DNA from: Bacteroidota bacterium
GTDB lineage: Bacteria; Bacteroidota; Ignavibacteria; UBA10030; BY39
DNA length: 41,709 nucleotides
Reading direction: 5' to 3'
Assembly: GCA_030017895.1 (NCBI GenBank)
Contig: JASEGV010000021.1
Span: forward strand, 1 to 41,709
Both the position numbers and the translations under genes were made by a program. The notes under the pieces are model-generated. The model saw nothing but the letters and a program-made list of their open reading frames with translations. It was not told the origin of the DNA and ran no database searches. Each line of letters opens with the position of its first letter. The stretch's first letter is position 1. Positions 3,979-14,989 of this stretch are shown piece by piece.

Positions 3979-4881
3979 ATGAAGGTATTTGAGAAGAATG
4001 GTCACAAAATAGTTTGGGGCGAGGCTATAGAGGCACTTGCCACAATTAAAGACAATTCTGTTGATCTGATTTTTGCCGATCCACCTTACAATATTGGAAA
4101 GAAATTTGTCGATTTTCCTGATCGGTGGGAATCAGATAGTTCGTATTTAAACTGGTGTTACAAATGGCTTCAATTGTGCATAAAGAAGTTAAAACCCAAC
4201 GGATCGCTGTATGTAATGACAGCCACTCAGAATATGCCCTACTTCGATCTTTTCCTCAGAGACAGGCTCATTATTTTATCTCGAATCGTCTGGTACTACG
4301 ACAGTTCAAGTGTTCAAGCCCGCAAGTATTTTGGTTCTTTATATGAGCCGATACTACACTGCGTTAAGGACGAGAAAGACTATACCTTCAATGCTAACGA
4401 TATTCTGGTCGAAGCAAAGACTGGAGCTGTGCGGAAGCTAATTGATTATAGGAAATCAGTCCCGACCGTGTATAACTCAAAGAAAGTCCCGGGAAACGTT
4501 TGGCATATTCCACGAGTAAGATACCGAATGGATGAATACGAAATTCATCCGACTCAAAAACCCACAGCATTATTAGAGAGGATCATCAAGGCAAGCAGCA
4601 ACGAGGGCGAACTAGTGGTTGATCCGTTCTCTGGCACCTTCACAACTTCACACGTTGCAAAACAACTCAAAAGGAAATCAATCGGAATTGAAATCAATGA
4701 AGACTATGTAAAGATTGGATTACGTCGATTGCAGATTGCTTCAGAGTTCAACGGTGAACCTCTACGCAGAGAGCGGAAAACATATCAGCCGCCAATAGAC
4801 GAAAAACAAACTACACTCTCCCTATTTGAAAAGAAAGCCAAATGGAACACGAGTTCACGAAAACGATCAAAAGTATCCTAG
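3979..4881 (+). CDS. DNA adenine-N6 methyltransferase, YhdJ-like (beta class)
   Basis: 300 residues. Motif IV ADPPYNIGK comes first (Asp34-Tyr37) and the SAM-binding motif DPFSGTFTT later (from Asp215), the beta-class order. The body follows E. coli YhdJ closely as I remember it: 'SRIVWYYDSSSVQARKYFGS', 'ILVEAKTGAVRKLIDYRK', 'KVPGNVW..PRVRY', 'HPTQKP' and 'GIEINEDYVKIGLRRL'. YhdJ methylates ATGCAT, so that target is the best guess here, by homology only. The next gene overlaps its end by 40 bp and encodes the likely cognate nuclease, making this the protective half of a Type II system. No controller (C) protein gene is seen. Confidence 0.9.
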   Translation: MKVFEKNGHKIVWGEAIEALATIKDNSVDLIFADPPYNIGKKFVDFPDRWESDSSYLNWCYKWLQLCIKKLKPNGSLYVMTATQNMPYFDLFLRDRLIILSRIVWYYDSSSVQARKYFGSLYEPILHCVKDEKDYTFNANDILVEAKTGAVRKLIDYRKSVPTVYNSKKVPGNVWHIPRVRYRMDEYEIHPTQKPTALLERIIKASSNEGELVVDPFSGTFTTSHVAKQLKRKSIGIEINEDYVKIGLRRLQIASEFNGEPLRRERKTYQPPIDEKQTTLSLFEKKAKWNTSSRKRSKVS

Positions 4882-5987
4882 AGAAAAACTTTCCTAAGTC
4901 ATCGGAGGCGGTCTTTTCAAGGAGCGTGCTTATTCAGTATTTCAATATTAAGACCAAGTCGGCCAACAAAGGTTCCAAATCGAGAGGGAGTTTTGCCAAT
5001 CTTTACGCAATCTATTTTTTGGTCGAAGATTACATTGCAAAAGGATTCCACAGATCAGGCAATTACAATAATTATGAGGGTGCGATATTCTCAACTCTAT
5101 TTAATAGACAGAGAGAACTTCCATTCGGTCAAAAATTGCAAAATCACGCACTCAATCACCGAATGAACGAGGAGTTTAAAAAGTTCTTCCCAAACTGCGA
5201 ATATATCCCCGTCCTTCGAGATCCTAATACAAATCGATACTGGATCAATCAGCATCTTCTCAAACTCGGTATTAGGTCCATGAAAAATGATCTTTCGGTG
5301 TCTATAATAGAAATAATCACCGCTTACATTGAGGCAAAGAGAAGTGCGTTTGACCGCTTTATCAAATTCTGTGAAGGGGCAGAGAAATTCAAAGAACAAG
5401 AACTTGTAGAATTTATCACAGGTTTGTTGGGGTCAACAGTAGATGCACGCATTTTTGAAATAGTAAGCTACAGCATCCTCAAGTATTACTATCACAATCA
5501 AAAACTCTACTGGGGTTTTGATCCCGTGTACCTCCAAGAAGATAATCTTAAACTCTACAAGACGGGACGCACGAACGCAAACGACGGCGGTGTTGATTTC
5601 GTGATGAAACCATTGGGGCGTTTTTTTCAGGTTACGGAGACTGTGGACGTAAAGAAATATTTTTTAGACATCGACAAGATTGAGAAATACCCGATAACGT
5701 TCGTTGTGAAGTCATCTGATTCAAATGATACTATAAAACATAAAATACAGGAACAAGCGGAGAGACAGTATTCAATCAAAGCTATTGTCTCTCGATATAT
5801 GTCCTGCATCGAAGAAATCATCAACATCCCTGAATTACTTATCAAGTTTCAATCGACAATCGATCAGGGTTTTTTGAACGACATACTCAACGAGATTATT
5901 AAACAAAGCAAAGTTGAATTCAACTACGACGAAGACGATTACGATTTCAGCGAATATGATAATGGAAAGGAATCGGAAGATAGTTGA
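4842..5987 (+). CDS. Type II restriction endonuclease (partner of the YhdJ-like methylase)
   Basis: 381 residues, starting inside the methylase gene in another frame, so methylase and nuclease are translationally linked. The N-terminal half is helical ('RGSFANLYAIYFLVEDYI'). The C-terminal half carries a probable PD-(D/E)xK-type core: 'NDGGVDFVMKPLGRFFQVTE', where Asp252 and the strand with Gln263 and Glu266 fit the acidic positions; the usual lysine is not obvious. The C-terminus is very acidic ('FNYDEDDYDFSEYDNGKESE'). From the partner's likely specificity I infer cleavage at or near ATGCAT, as in NsiI/EcoT22I/AvaIII-type enzymes. The family assignment rests on context and this motif. Confidence 0.75.
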   Translation: MEHEFTKTIKSILEKNFPKSSEAVFSRSVLIQYFNIKTKSANKGSKSRGSFANLYAIYFLVEDYIAKGFHRSGNYNNYEGAIFSTLFNRQRELPFGQKLQNHALNHRMNEEFKKFFPNCEYIPVLRDPNTNRYWINQHLLKLGIRSMKNDLSVSIIEIITAYIEAKRSAFDRFIKFCEGAEKFKEQELVEFITGLLGSTVDARIFEIVSYSILKYYYHNQKLYWGFDPVYLQEDNLKLYKTGRTNANDGGVDFVMKPLGRFFQVTETVDVKKYFLDIDKIEKYPITFVVKSSDSNDTIKHKIQEQAERQYSIKAIVSRYMSCIEEIINIPELLIKFQSTIDQGFLNDILNEIIKQSKVEFNYDEDDYDFSEYDNGKESEDS

Positions 5988-11104: not shown

Positions 11105-11485
11105 CTATACTGCACCAATATTTCTTAATTTTTCAAATGTTCTTAAAGAAAGATGATATGCGGTTTCTGCTCTTTTCAGATCAATAGATGCATTATTATC
11201 ATAATCAGCAACTTTCCTTTCTTTCCATAAGCGTCTCAGGTTATTTCCAATTTCTTGTTCAATCTTATTTGAAGAGTTGATATATTTTTCCCTAACAAAT
11301 TTATGTGTATCTATCATTTGTATTATTATACCTTGTTTATCGAGAAAATTTCGTGATATACCAAATGCCCCATAATATAAACGACTTAGCGAGGTACGCA
11401 GATATGCTTCTCTTAAATTTGAATGACAATAATTATTAAATAATTTCTCTGCTAATTCTATATACAAAGTCCAATCAAAGCTCAT
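11105..11485 (-). CDS. HEPN-like domain protein, third gene of a three-gene operon
   Basis: 126 residues, all-helical. It shows two hallmarks of HEPN proteins: an early 'LSRLYYGAFGISRNFLDK' helix, like the 'SRAYYAxF' of PF05168-type proteins, and a late 'RRLWKERKVADYDN', like their 'LRxxRxxADYD'. HEPN domains are common in toxin-antitoxin, abortive-infection and RNA-processing systems. The canonical catalytic R-x4-6-H is not evident: the late motif has Asp-Tyr-Asp where His would be expected. RNase activity therefore should not be assumed. Its ATG overlaps the stop of the upstream gene (ATGA), so the two proteins are made together. Confidence 0.65.
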   Translation of the reverse strand: MSFDWTLYIELAEKLFNNYCHSNLREAYLRTSLSRLYYGAFGISRNFLDKQGIIIQMIDTHKFVREKYINSSNKIEQEIGNNLRRLWKERKVADYDNNASIDLKRAETAYHLSLRTFEKLRNIGAV

Positions 11486-11958
11486 ACAGGTCTAACCATC
11501 ACAGATAATATTTTTTTAACCCTTACATCAATATCGAACCATATTTCTTCATCAAATTTATCTAACAGATCTAAAGAATCTTCTGGAGATAAATTCGTTT
11601 TAATAATAACTGAGAGTCCCTCATAATTTTCTTCCGGATCTTCATCGAATTCTAAACAAATCTCTACTACTTTATTACAAAAAATATTCATGACCTTTTC
11701 GTTGATATTAAGAAGTGGTTTGATGATATAATAATGATCATAAATTACTCTTTTTACTTGTTCTGAGTTTTGAAAATTATATGATTTTTGGAGTAGATTG
11801 AAATTATTAATAAAAGTAAGAGAATAACTACTCTTAACAGATTCGAAAATATCTGTTTGATTTAATACTTCTGTATAAGTTCTTGTTGAGCTCACAAATC
11901 CATAAGGAAGAAATTCTCTACTTGTATATTCATTGGGAAAGTATGGTACTTCGATCAT
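11482..11958 (-). CDS. Unknown protein, middle gene of the HEPN/TIGR04255-like operon
   Basis: 158 residues, no family recognised. The N-terminus is 'MIEVPYFPNEYTSREFLPYG'. Mixed helix and strand with an acidic C-terminal half ('EFDEDPEENYEGLSVIIKTN', 'DLLDKFDEEIWFDID') ending 'KILSVMVRPV'. The pattern 'LSVIIKTNLSPEDSLDLLDKF' recalls small proteins with a strand-helix fold, but that is only an impression. No signal peptide or membrane segment. It starts 14 bp after the TIGR04255-like gene and its stop overlaps the start of the HEPN-like gene, so it is firmly within the operon. Confidence 0.6.
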   Translation of the reverse strand: MIEVPYFPNEYTSREFLPYGFVSSTRTYTEVLNQTDIFESVKSSYSLTFINNFNLLQKSYNFQNSEQVKRVIYDHYYIIKPLLNINEKVMNIFCNKVVEICLEFDEDPEENYEGLSVIIKTNLSPEDSLDLLDKFDEEIWFDIDVRVKKILSVMVRPV

Positions 11959-11972
11959 ATTGAAAATATTTT

Positions 11973-12719
11973 TTATTGTTTATTATTAAATAACTGACGA
12001 CAGGAATCGGTAATTGATTCTTCAAATATTTCTATTACTTTATCATGAGCTTCTTCGATCCAGTTTAAAACATTATCCATACTCACTTCTTCAGGTTTTG
12101 CTAACACGTAGTCCCAATCAAGGATTATTACTGTTTTATCAGCAAGCTTTTCTTGTGATTTATGAATTGATAGAATCAATACATCTCTTCCATTGAAAAA
12201 CGACATTTCTAAACGCATAAAAAACTGAGTAATATTACGATCTTCAACTTTGGGGATATGTGGATATATTTTAAAATATTCACTCAAATCAAATGATATC
12301 TTTGGAACCTCCACTCTGTCAATATATCGTAAACCAATTCTTTCAATCCCATCAGGCTGTACAATTTCTCTGAAGATATCGAAAGCTTTCTTTGCAGTGG
12401 GAATAAACTTCTCCCAATTTGAATAAGGCGGTATATGATGTGCTGAAACCATATTAGGAGCAACTCTAATAAGTTTCTCTCCACTATTGGTTTTATATTG
12501 CATGCCTAGCAATTTAGTTCTAACTTTTTGTTGAATATCTTCTTTACTAAATTCAAGCTTCGCTTCATACTCGTGTAGTTCTTCTTTATTAGGGTATTCA
12601 TCTTTTATTTTCTCATAAAATCTACCCGGGACAGATATATCATTTGGGTTTTTAACTTTAAATCGAATTTCACAAACAATTTCAATAACAGGCGGGTTGA
12701 TATATTTTCGTGAACTCAT
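11973..12719 (-). CDS. TIGR04255-family-like protein
   Basis: 248 residues. The N-terminus 'YINPPVIEIVCEIRFKVKN' followed by 'PGRFYEKIKDEYP', and the central 'IERIGLRYIDRVEVP', match what I remember of TIGR04255 proteins (PPxxEaxCEIRF ... LRYINR), a family of about 250 residues with no known function. Soluble, no signal peptide. First gene of a three-gene minus-strand operon with the 158-residue unknown and the HEPN-like protein. TIGR04255 proteins often occur in accessory regions beside such small genes. Base composition of these three genes is visibly AT-rich compared with the peptidase gene alongside. Confidence 0.7.
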   Translation of the reverse strand: MSSRKYINPPVIEIVCEIRFKVKNPNDISVPGRFYEKIKDEYPNKEELHEYEAKLEFSKEDIQQKVRTKLLGMQYKTNSGEKLIRVAPNMVSAHHIPPYSNWEKFIPTAKKAFDIFREIVQPDGIERIGLRYIDRVEVPKISFDLSEYFKIYPHIPKVEDRNITQFFMRLEMSFFNGRDVLILSIHKSQEKLADKTVIILDWDYVLAKPEEVSMDNVLNWIEEAHDKVIEIFEESITDSCRQLFNNKQ

Positions 12720-12832
12720 ATTCTTTTTTCCTCAAAATTGAAGGCTTTCATTTATCATTTACCTTTTGAACCATTCAAATATAAGCTCAATTCATTTAAT
12801 AATCAAGAACCATTGCTAAATCAATCAATCTT

Positions 12833-13933
12833 TTACTTTATAGTATAAAATGAATCTATCATCTTTCCGGTCAAATCATAGACTTCCATTTTCAACAAAT
12901 TGCCAGCAACAGAAATGAAGCAATAACTGAATTCTTTTTTCCCAAACACATAGCCACTGTCCGGGTTGTCAATTTCATACAACGGAGCGCCGCCGCCACC
13001 TGCCACTACATAATTTATGCTGTCGACCAAATATCGCTGGTAGTTGTGGTCGTGTCCGTTAAAAATGATGTCGGGACTGAACGGTTTGAATACATCTATA
13101 AATTGATTTCTGAATTCTTCTCTGCTCTGTTTACGTTTATCAACAGAAGAATACGGCGGGTGATGATAAAATATGAAAGTAAATTTTTTATCTGTGCTAT
13201 TCGCTAAAACATCCGATAAATATTCTTTCTGATCTTCCCTTCCGTTAAAAGGATGGTTGCTATCCAGCACTATGAAATTTGAATTTCCCCAAGTGAACGA
13301 ATAATAATTCTCTTTATCCGGAAGAGCAAAGTAGTTATAATACCGCTCGTCGTTATCCTCGTGATTTCCTAATACAGGATAATAAGGAATGAATTTCATT
13401 AGTTGATTATTGATCTCGAAAAACTTATCCCAGTCAGATTGTATATTCCCCTTCATAACAAAATCACCGGTATGGACGACAAAATTAGGTTGGTGCAAAA
13501 TAATTCTATTAACTAAATTGTTATGTACTTCATGTCCATCGCGTGTATCTCCTAAAACTACAAAACTGAATGCGGTAGTATCAACCGGCGCTGTCCAAAA
13601 TTTATATACTTCAGATTCATAACCTCCGTCCGTTACCTGATAAAAATATTCTGTCTGAGGATTAAGCCCGTTTAAAGTGATTTGATGGTAAGTTGTTTTT
13701 CTGTTGTCAGATTTTCTTACTCCTAAACTCGAATCGAGACCGTATTTAACTTCTCCGAGTCCAATTTCTTCGCTTATCCAACAAATTGTAATACCGGTTT
13801 GTGTAGTGTTTTGTAAATATGGTCCTTTTTCAATTTGTCCGATCGAAATGTTTGAAAATATTGCCGACCCAAATATGAATATGAATAATATCTTTATACA
13901 AGAATTGTTATTTAACATGAGATTTTCTTTCAT
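12833..13933 (-). CDS. Secreted purple-acid-phosphatase-like metallophosphoesterase
   Basis: 366 residues from ATG 13933; ATG 13918 would also work and keeps the whole signal peptide. Signal peptide 'CIKILFIFIFGSAIFSNISIG', then an Fn3-like N-domain ('KGPYLQNTTQTGITICWISE') as in purple acid phosphatases. The calcineurin-type metal-binding motifs follow in order: 'VLGDTRDGH', 'HTGDFV', 'VLGNHEDND', 'IFYHHPPYS' and 'NGHDHNYQR'. It probably hydrolyses phosphomonoesters outside the cytoplasm with a two-metal centre. It lacks a complete sorting domain; the C-terminus 'LKMEVYDLTGKMIDSFYTIK' resembles a shortened one. The start overlaps the end of the decayed transporter gene. Confidence 0.88.
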   Translation of the reverse strand: MKENLMLNNNSCIKILFIFIFGSAIFSNISIGQIEKGPYLQNTTQTGITICWISEEIGLGEVKYGLDSSLGVRKSDNRKTTYHQITLNGLNPQTEYFYQVTDGGYESEVYKFWTAPVDTTAFSFVVLGDTRDGHEVHNNLVNRIILHQPNFVVHTGDFVMKGNIQSDWDKFFEINNQLMKFIPYYPVLGNHEDNDERYYNYFALPDKENYYSFTWGNSNFIVLDSNHPFNGREDQKEYLSDVLANSTDKKFTFIFYHHPPYSSVDKRKQSREEFRNQFIDVFKPFSPDIIFNGHDHNYQRYLVDSINYVVAGGGGAPLYEIDNPDSGYVFGKKEFSYCFISVAGNLLKMEVYDLTGKMIDSFYTIK

Positions 13934-14989
13934 CAATTTTCTTTACAACTTTTCCATATATAAAAAGAGCAATAGCCGATACTGAACCGATTGCGGAGAA
14001 GTAATACCAAATATAATTTGCATTATCATACGCATGAATTAGTTGCTCCGGCGAAAGTGTTTTCGGATCCGGGCAATACGCAGTAAGCAAATAACCAGAT
14101 ATGCCGAATCCGAGAATAGAAGATAGGAATGAGTGTAAATGACTAAAACCTAAATAAGCGCCTTCTTCGCCTTTTGGCGCTTGCAGCGAGAAGAATTCGA
14201 GATAATGCGGTGAGATAAAACATTCAGCTAATCCCTGTACCATTATTCCGGCAATCATCATTACGGTGATAGGATGCAGTGTAAATAAACCAAAGATTGA
14301 AACGGATTGTCCAGTCAGAGATTCCAAAAGCGGACTTGAAGCCATAAGCAACGCCGAGAACGGCATTAAGAGCATACCGATACTCATGGAAGTAATTGCT
14401 TGTACACGTTTCATTAATTGAGTAATTAAAACTACCGATGTCATTACCACGAATGGATTCACGTTCGCAATCCACTCTGGTGAGGCATGCTCGCCAACGG
14501 TTCTTAAAACATATTTCGGCATCGTCGCATACATCTGGTGTTGTATCATCCAAAAACCAGTTACAATAAGTATTAATATCAACATTCTTATAGAAAAAAT
14601 AAACAACGATAAGAGCAATGAACGTCATAGCTGCGGCAAAAAAGTTAATCGATTCCAGCCCGAAATAGATGCGGAGCGGGTAGAACAGTTGCTTTATACG
14701 GCAACGCACCTAAAGCAAAATAGCCGACTGATAAAAGTGCGAAGGCAAGTATTATTGCTTTACGAAAACCAATCTTATCGGCAAAAGCGCCTGTAAATGG
14801 CGGTAGAAAATACAGACCTGCAGAGAATACACCGCCAATCCAAGCGGCGGCTATATCATCGAAACCGACTACGTTTGTAAGATATAATGTAATTGCAATG
14901 AAGACTGCATAATATGCCGCTCGCTCAAAAAGCTCAACGGCGTTGGCAGTCCAAAATGCGCGTGGGAATTTCCATGTGGGTTTTGTCAT
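13908..14989 (-). pseudogene. Decayed MFS/POT-like transporter
   Basis: Three frames in order cover one transporter. Frame one starts MTKPTWKFPRAFWTANAVEL, contains 'PPFTGAFADKIGFRKAI' (the conserved loop between helices 2 and 3) and breaks near 14690. Frame two holds 'PLRIYFGLESINFFAAAMTF' and breaks near 14600. Frame three runs from 'LILILIVTGFWMIQHQMYA' to KIDERKSHVK at 13908. The whole span allows about 360 codons, whereas relatives I remember have about 480, so roughly 80 residues are missing at the first break and some 25 at the second, besides the frameshifts. This is real decay, not a base-call error. It would have been a 12-helix inner-membrane carrier of unknown substrate. Confidence 0.75.

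What the first reader, a model, noticed from the sequence alone, without database searches (positions are those of the whole stretch)
11105..12719. Three-gene operon: TIGR04255-like, unknown and HEPN-like proteins as a possible toxin-antitoxin or defence unit
Seen: three minus-strand genes with gaps of 14 bp and an ATGA overlap, so their products are made in a fixed ratio. The first resembles TIGR04255 (no known function), the second has no recognised family, the third has HEPN-like motifs but lacks the R-x4-6-H catalytic pattern. Known: HEPN proteins often act in toxin-antitoxin and abortive-infection systems. Inference: the three may form one functional unit in which HEPN binds rather than cuts RNA, or acts with the unknown subunit. 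It is the most system-like uncharacterised cluster in the window.
Basis: partly seen in the sequence, partly recalled or inferred. Interest (0 to 1): 0.62.

Follow-up and report, generated by a model that had tools for sequence, protein, structure and literature searches.

The report
Three-gene toxin module with shared hub
A rare three-gene bacterial operon pairs a probable RNA-cutting toxin with its small partner protein and a third protein of unknown function that, elsewhere, heads many operons with different toxins, which suggests a new kind of triggered self-shutdown defence that often sits inside DNA-restriction gene clusters.

Summary
In detail: three minus-strand genes at 11105-12719 form one unit (14-bp gap, ATGA overlap). 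The first is a clear TIGR04255 member. The third is a HEPN protein. The same order (TIGR04255, middle, HEPN) recurs in 35 of 80 TIGR04255 loci from many bacterial phyla and methanogens.

The reading 'HEPN binds rather than cuts' is probably wrong. All 35 aligned HEPNs lack the classical R-x4-6-H but keep an upstream histidine (H61), R90 and a tyrosine pair. H61 and the tyrosines align with retron-Kva2 HEPN, whose H64 and R122 are required for defence.

TIGR04255 is the constant part. Other copies, including one in the same genome, head operons whose third gene is a PIN (VapC-like) or PemK/MazF toxin, or an unknown. Middle proteins with an upstream accessory gene carry a long N-terminal tail (median 74 aa versus 16 without). 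Several triplets sit between methylase and restriction-subunit genes, as prrC does.

Best explanation: a tripartite toxin module. HEPN is the RNase, the middle protein its regulator or antitoxin, and TIGR04255 a hub or sensor that docks the regulator's tail. Architecture and conservation are shown; toxicity, neutralisation, complex formation and phage sensing are inferred. The window copy lies among housekeeping genes.

The parts
11973..12719 (-). Gene 1: TIGR04255 family protein (248 aa); the constant 'hub' gene of the module
   Evidence: NCBIfam TIGR04255 E=1.8e-38; AF2 model pLDDT 93.2, two beta-alpha-beta-sheet-alpha halves; 58-sequence alignment with invariant P10, E13, E17, Y99, Y132, F232
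11482..11958 (-). Gene 2: middle protein (158 aa), predicted toxin regulator/antitoxin and adaptor
   Evidence: No Pfam, NCBIfam, PADLOC or convincing PHROG match; homologues directly upstream of HEPN in all triplets and in TIGR04255-less pairs
11830..11958 (-). N-terminal tail of the middle protein (about residues 1-43), predicted disordered; proposed docking segment for the TIGR04255 protein
   Evidence: AF2 pLDDT about 50-60 for residues 1-40 against 97 for the core; tail long only when an accessory gene is present upstream, with one exception
11485..11829 (-). Folded core of the middle protein (about residues 44-158); conserved D-P-E segment at 107-109
   Evidence: pLDDT about 97; alignment A7; KH-II-like topology only at background level
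11105..11485 (-). Gene 3: HEPN protein (126 aa), predicted RNase effector/toxin
   Evidence: Family profile matches PDB 9xbd HEPN E=1.2e-9 and retron-Kva2 HEPN 36ht E=4.4e-4; Pfam HEPN PF05168 in 18 of 35 family members; PADLOC HEPN_IX 3.5e-5 for the window protein
11303..11305 (-). Codon of invariant His61 (35/35), aligned with catalytic H64 of retron-Kva2 HEPN
   Evidence: PMC13405049
11201..11218 (-). Codons of R90-x3-D94-Y95, invariant (35/35) where other HEPNs have R-x4-6-H
12720..12832 (-). Upstream intergenic region, presumed to hold the operon's promoter
   Evidence: 113 bp between gene 1 and the metallophosphatase gene; promoter-like matches only at chance level

Best explanation
The locus is a tripartite toxin module. 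The HEPN protein is an RNase (most likely a tRNase) whose active site uses H61 and R90 instead of the classical R-x4-6-H. The middle protein is its dedicated regulator, most likely an antitoxin: the folded core holds the HEPN protein, and the long disordered N-terminal tail docks onto the TIGR04255 protein. TIGR04255 is a general hub that works with interchangeable regulator/toxin pairs (HEPN, PIN, PemK/MazF and several unknown ones). It probably stabilises the regulator until a phage product or stress titrates or alters it, which frees the RNase and stops growth. Shown: gene order, conservation, swapping of partners, tail-length association, HEPN homology, restriction-modification embedding of a subset. 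Inferred: RNase activity, toxicity, neutralisation, the complex, the trigger.
For: (1) TIGR04255-middle-HEPN order in 35 of 80 loci across many phyla and methanogens; distances of the three proteins correlate (Mantel r 0.58-0.74, p 0.001). (2) Third gene swapped for PIN (E 4e-14, 6e-19), PemK/MazF (4e-13), DUF7689 or unknowns, including a PIN-like version in the window's own genome (L012, L162). The TIGR04255 tree shows partner switches inside single clades. (3) HEPN: R30, R35, Y37, H61, R90, D94, Y95 are 35/35; H61 and Y37/Y38 align with H64 and Y41/Y42 of retron-Kva2 HEPN, where H64A, R122A or Y40-42A abolish defence (PMC13405049). Anantharaman 2013 predicted this alternative site for AF0298-type HEPNs (PMC3710099). 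(4) Middle-protein tail: median 74 aa with TIGR04255 (n=39) against 16 aa where no accessory gene was seen (n=13), MWU p=9e-8. Four long-tailed cyanobacterial loci without TIGR04255 have a different 222-230 aa gene directly upstream, and in L145 that accessory is fused in frame to the middle protein. (5) Restriction-modification embedding: L043, L044, L045, L047 lie between DNA methylase and ResIII genes (gaps -7 to 18 bp); L036, L048, L052, L055, L059 lie directly upstream of a Res/HsdR gene.
Against: No experiment supports toxicity or neutralisation. The middle protein matches no known antitoxin, and its core resembles only a common KH-II-like arrangement (Z 7.4, background level). TIGR04255 matches no chaperone; its nearest folds (TBP, AdoMetDC, guanido kinases) are weak and point nowhere specific. 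A shared linear docking motif across middle proteins was sought and not found. One pair without TIGR04255 (L147) has a 46-aa N-terminal extension and was left out of the test; L126 and L130 have ambiguous start codons. Many triplets, the window's included, lie among housekeeping genes.
Confidence: 0.5

Rival explanations
1. Sensor-effector abortive system without an antitoxin: TIGR04255 and the middle protein are needed to activate HEPN (both recognise a phage ligand), and the HEPN protein alone is harmless.
For: TIGR04255 has a high-confidence two-repeat fold with weak similarity to TBP/AdoMetDC-type ligand- and nucleic-acid-binding proteins. DefensePredictor's PIN system DS-5 needs its second protein for defence and is not toxic when that protein is deleted (PMC13092281).
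Against: TIGR04255-less two-gene middle-HEPN pairs exist, so the pair works without a hub, as TA pairs do. Third-position PIN and PemK/MazF proteins belong to families whose known members are mostly TA toxins.
Confidence: 0.27
2. One reading: the HEPN protein is catalytically dead and acts by binding RNA or by scaffolding.
For: No R-x4-6-H at the usual site in any of 35 members.
Against: Strict conservation of an alternative His, Arg, Asp and Tyr set, aligned with a HEPN whose H/R site is required for defence and tRNA breakdown.
Confidence: 0.13
3. Guard of restriction: the module monitors a linked restriction-modification enzyme, as PrrC does, and fires when restriction is blocked; TIGR04255/middle are the interface to the R subunit.
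For: Placement between Mod and Res or directly upstream of HsdR/Res in at least 9 loci with near-zero gaps in most; prrC is embedded among hsdMSR genes and held inactive by that R-M system (PMC3710099).
Against: Most triplets, and the window copy, have no adjacent restriction-modification genes. Non-HEPN TIGR04255 loci also have some R-M neighbours (ResIII 3, N6_Mtase 2 of 99 genes).
Confidence: 0.07
4. Operon of unrelated or metabolic function that merely uses a HEPN-like fold.
For: Window neighbours are housekeeping genes; some triplets lie inside glycolytic operons (L030, L032, between pgk and tpiA).
Against: Sporadic distribution (TIGR04255 in 16 of 296 genomes of the phylum), partner swapping among toxin families, R-M embedding.
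Confidence: 0.03

Closest known systems
Toxin-antitoxin-chaperone (TAC) systems, e.g. M. tuberculosis TAC and CmdTAC (PMC5105189, PMC6377645, PMC11618068)
   Same: Constant third gene with interchangeable toxin/antitoxin pairs; regulator carries an extra extension correlated with the third gene; small three-gene operon.
   Different: Third protein is TIGR04255, not recognisably SecB-like; the extension is N-terminal, not C-terminal; chaperone function not shown.
Type IX retron HEPN (retron-Kva2, PMC13405049)
   Same: HEPN without the canonical motif but with the aligned upstream His and a Tyr pair (H64, Y41/Y42 against H61, Y37/Y38).
   Different: No reverse transcriptase, ncRNA or winged-helix protein beside the window genes; different regulators.
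MNT-HEPN toxin-antitoxin pairs (HEPN-T/UPF0332, PF05168; PDB 9xbd, 2hsb)
   Same: Near HEPN sequence relatives, with R-x3-D-Y in place of R-x4-6-H; distant HEPN hits such as L137, L139-L141 and L153 sit beside nucleotidyltransferase-like genes.
   Different: No nucleotidyltransferase here; the middle protein is unrelated to MNT.
PrrC / EcoprrI
   Same: HEPN RNase gene lodged among restriction-modification genes, in a subset of relatives.
   Different: No ABC ATPase domain; the window copy has no adjacent R-M genes.
TIGR04255 (NCBIfam sporadTIGR04255)
   Same: Gene 1 is a clear member (E=1.8e-38).
   Different: No function was found for the family in the sources searched (no paper in the held library); here it is placed as a hub of toxin modules.

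Membership tests
TIGR04255 protein family | Whole-length match above the curated cut-off of 30 bits | tested here: met
   132.8 bits, model positions 1-252 of 252
HEPN superfamily (HEPN-T/PF05168) | Significant profile similarity to HEPN domains | tested here: met
   Family profile against PDB 9xbd E=1.2e-9, 36ht 4.4e-4, 2hsb 0.038; PF05168 in 18 of 35 members; the window protein alone does not reach Pfam's cut-off
HEPN superfamily (HEPN-T/PF05168) | Classical R-x4-6-H catalytic motif | tested here: not met
   R90-x3-D94-Y95 in all 35; alternative H61 invariant, a known variant in AF0298-type and type IX retron HEPNs, so this does not exclude HEPN membership
Type II toxin-antitoxin system | Two adjacent co-oriented small genes, a toxin-family protein and a cognate small partner | tested here: met
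   Middle-HEPN pairs conserved with and without TIGR04255; co-transcription inferred from overlap only
Type II toxin-antitoxin system | Toxicity of one protein and neutralisation by the other | not testable with these tools
   Needs expression experiments
TAC (toxin-antitoxin-chaperone) | SecB-like chaperone as third component | tested here: inconclusive
   TIGR04255 model shows TBP/AdoMetDC/guanido-kinase-like matches, all weak; SecB is not among the listed rows, which does not exclude it
TAC (toxin-antitoxin-chaperone) | Antitoxin carries an extension absent from relatives that lack the third gene | tested here: met
   Tail median 74 against 16 aa, p=9e-8, but at the N-terminus, and L147 is an exception; chaperone dependence itself not tested
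Restriction-linked guard (PrrC-like) | Gene embedded in a restriction-modification operon | tested here: not met
   Not met for the window copy: neighbours are a metallophosphatase and an M24 peptidase gene. Met for at least 9 relatives
Type IX retron | Reverse transcriptase, msr/msd RNA and winged-helix gene in the same operon | tested here: not met
   The operon has three genes, none of them an RT, and no Rfam match was found in the window

The most novel reading that the evidence does not exclude
TIGR04255 is a previously unrecognised, non-SecB sensor/chaperone hub that arms a broad superfamily of three-gene antiviral toxin modules. It captures the disordered tails of unrelated antitoxins and releases HEPN, PIN, MazF and several still unknown toxins when a phage product binds it, partly as a back-up of restriction-modification enzymes.
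Probability: 0.3. Interest if true: 0.82.

Novelty: new variant of a known kind. Interest (0 to 1): 0.62.

Why it matters
It gives a testable role to TIGR04255, a sporadic family for which no paper was found in the held library. It predicts an extended class of tripartite toxin modules, including several third-gene families of unknown activity (DUF7689, the 'MFLARK' family, the 'TQSCDL' family) that become candidate toxins by position. It also adds a HEPN clade with the alternative His/Arg site to the growing set of non-canonical HEPN RNases, and links it to restriction-modification operons in bacteria and methanogens.

Tried and rejected
Rejected: HEPN as an inactive fold, because of the strict alternative conservation.

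Cross-class linear docking motif in middle proteins: a motif learned on HEPN-type middles scored 48 other middles no better than shuffled copies at width 8 (mean p 0.49) and only weakly at width 12 (mean p 0.31, 6 of 48 under 0.05). The training locked onto the folded core, so it is a failed test rather than a disproof.

SecB-like fold for TIGR04255: not among listed structural matches, inconclusive. Middle-protein KH-II-like match: Z 7.4, within the background stated by the tool.

Viral HEPN relatives: 16 pattern matches, none confirmed; tblastn found no HEPN in phages and no middle protein in plasmids. Promoter and terminator scan at chance level.

R-M enrichment of HEPN-type against other TIGR04255 loci: 13/36 against 3/53, Fisher p=4e-4, but the queries came from the HEPN loci and some loci are close kin; a Pfam control on other TIGR04255 loci also found R-M neighbours, so only the operonic embedding itself is claimed.

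The search with the window's own middle protein in the phylum mainly found stand-alone core homologues next to a dihydrolipoamide acyltransferase gene.

Full report
Observation. Gene 1 is a full-length TIGR04255 member (E=1.8e-38). Gene 2 matches no family. Gene 3 has only weak single-sequence matches (PADLOC HEPN_IX 3.5e-5; phrog_5176 1.1e-7).

The unit is real. In 296 genomes of the same phylum, TIGR04255 occurs in 16 and HEPN relatives (E<=1e-3) in 3, the window's genome included. A distant genome (L007) carries all three genes in the same order with overlapping ends, beside a PglZ gene. A scan of genome contigs with a TIGR04255 alignment gave 80 loci. In 35 of them a middle protein and a HEPN gene follow directly, in Clostridia, Anaerolineae, Nitrospirae, Zixibacteria, Acidobacteria, Rubrobacter, WOR-3, Methanomicrobiales and others. 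The share is biased upwards because the query included the window's own protein. Pairwise distances of the three proteins correlate over 30 loci (Spearman 0.58-0.74, Mantel p 0.001), as expected for a unit inherited together.

The HEPN protein. The profile of 35 relatives matches solved HEPN structures (9xbd 1.2e-9; retron-Kva2 36ht 4.4e-4; AF0298 2hsb 0.038), and 18 of 35 members match Pfam HEPN. R-x4-6-H is absent at its usual place: every member has R90-x3-D94-Y95. Every member also has H61, R35 and Y37. Anantharaman et al. 2013 noted that AF0298-type HEPN-T proteins with D in place of H have another conserved His between helices 2 and 3 that could serve catalysis (PMC3710099). In retron-Kva2 the HEPN also lacks the canonical motif; H64, R122 and Y40-42 are needed for defence and the system breaks down tRNA (PMC13405049, a preprint). 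In the profile alignment Kva2 H64 falls on H61 and Y41-Y42 on Y37-Y38. R122 of Kva2 lies beyond the aligned part, so its match to R90 is inference. I therefore expect an active RNase.

TIGR04255 is the constant part. In other loci the genes after it are a different small protein and a different third protein: PIN (4e-14 and 5.8e-19), PemK/MazF (4.1e-13), DUF7689 (2.1e-39) and several families without a match. The window's own genome has a second copy followed by a 117-aa protein and a PIN-like protein (L012/L162), which clusters with the Pfam-confirmed PIN protein of L034. On the TIGR04255 tree most partner types form groups, but PIN falls inside a HEPN clade and PIN/DUF7689 alternate within one starred clade, so pairs have been exchanged on the same hub. 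Many inner branches are open, so exact numbers of switches are not claimed. The AlphaFold2 model is confident (pLDDT 93.2, pTM 0.87): two beta-alpha-beta-sheet-alpha halves. Foldseek's best matches are TBP and AdoMetDC (E 3e-4, low TM), VIA-align's are guanido kinases (Z 9.1, 3.7 A over 185 residues), so only a general two-repeat arrangement is claimed.

The middle protein. Its model has a disordered tail (residues 1 to about 40, pLDDT about 50-60) and a confident core. In cyanobacteria the middle-HEPN pair often occurs without TIGR04255. There the middle protein is little more than the core: 5-21 residues before the core in 13 proteins (two of them stand-alone core homologues without HEPN, two with ambiguous starts), against 36-109 (median 74) in 39 TIGR04255-linked ones. 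L147 is an exception (46 residues, no accessory seen). Four cyanobacterial loci with long tails and no TIGR04255 (L131, L133, L136, L135) turned out to have another gene of 222-230 aa directly upstream that has no TIGR04255 match, and in L145 a relative of that gene is fused in frame with the middle protein. A long tail thus goes with an upstream accessory protein, and a fusion suggests contact, although a deletion that joined two genes is not excluded. This resembles the chaperone-addiction extension of TAC antitoxins (PMC5105189, PMC6377645), although there it is C-terminal and the partner is SecB-like. CmdTAC shows how such a third protein can sense a phage: capsid protein draws the chaperone off the antitoxin (PMC11618068).

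Neighbourhood. In L043, L044, L045 and L047 the triplet lies between a DNA methylase gene (N6_N4_Mtase 4e-28 to 4e-50 where scanned) and a ResIII gene, with gaps of -7 to 18 bp. In L036, L048, L052, L055 and L059 it lies directly before a Res or HsdR gene. L054 and L068 follow a DNA methylase and an HsdS gene, and L159 lies beside genes that resemble HsdS and HsdM. This recalls prrC, which is embedded among the hsdMSR genes of EcoprrI and is held inactive by that R-M system (PMC3710099). R-M linkage of HEPN genes in general is known from the same paper; the linkage for this triplet is what is added. Other triplets, and the window copy, lie among housekeeping genes.

Mechanism. Most likely: HEPN RNase toxin, middle protein as antitoxin/adaptor, TIGR04255 as stabilising hub and probable sensor; release leads to RNA (probably tRNA) cleavage and growth arrest. 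Steps shown by sequence: unit, HEPN homology, alternative site, partner exchange, tail association, R-M embedding. Steps inferred: activity, neutralisation, complex, trigger, defence role. Confidence 0.5 for the whole chain; about 0.75 each for 'HEPN is an active RNase effector' and 'the middle protein is its direct regulator', and about 0.55 for 'TIGR04255 docks the tail'.

Novelty. All parts except the middle protein belong to named families, and tripartite toxin systems are known, so I file it as a new variant of a known kind. No held paper mentions TIGR04255. The most novel reading not excluded is a broad class of hub-controlled toxin modules built on a non-SecB sensor.

Noticed in passing
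L162:6616-8106 (window's own genome, G000 contig C10): Second TIGR04255 operon in the same genome: TIGR04255, 117-aa protein, PIN-like protein, the last two overlapping by 4 bases.
   Followed up: partly
L155:5139-5831, L156:1845-2531, L157:4098-4790, L158:4769-5437: Unrelated 222-230 aa accessory gene that takes the TIGR04255 position before long-tailed middle proteins in cyanobacteria; a relative is fused to the middle protein in L145.
   Followed up: partly
L084:5472-5990 and relatives (L019, L082, L085, L088, L089, L092, L098, L099, L101, L103): Uncharacterised 'MFLARKITRAKW' protein in third position after TIGR04255 and a HEAT-like middle protein; candidate toxin of unknown type.
   Followed up: no
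L041, L060, L080, L091, L104, L113-L118: Third-position proteins in other TIGR04255 loci; several share a 'TQSCDL' segment or variants, no Pfam match for the one tested; some of these loci are in viral contigs.
   Followed up: no
L009:5458-5808 and L010:5565-5909: Stand-alone 114-116 aa homologue of the middle protein's core beside a dihydrolipoamide acyltransferase gene, without HEPN.
   Followed up: partly
window 13908-14989: MFS/POT-type transporter gene apparently split by a frameshift into overlapping minus-strand ORFs.
   Followed up: no
window 3979-5987: DNA methyltransferase ORF (FADPPYNIG motif) overlapping a 381-aa ORF that may be its restriction endonuclease; 5 kb from the operon, so not counted as its context.
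   Followed up: no
L030, L032: Triplet inserted between phosphoglycerate kinase and triosephosphate isomerase genes of a glycolytic operon.
   Followed up: no
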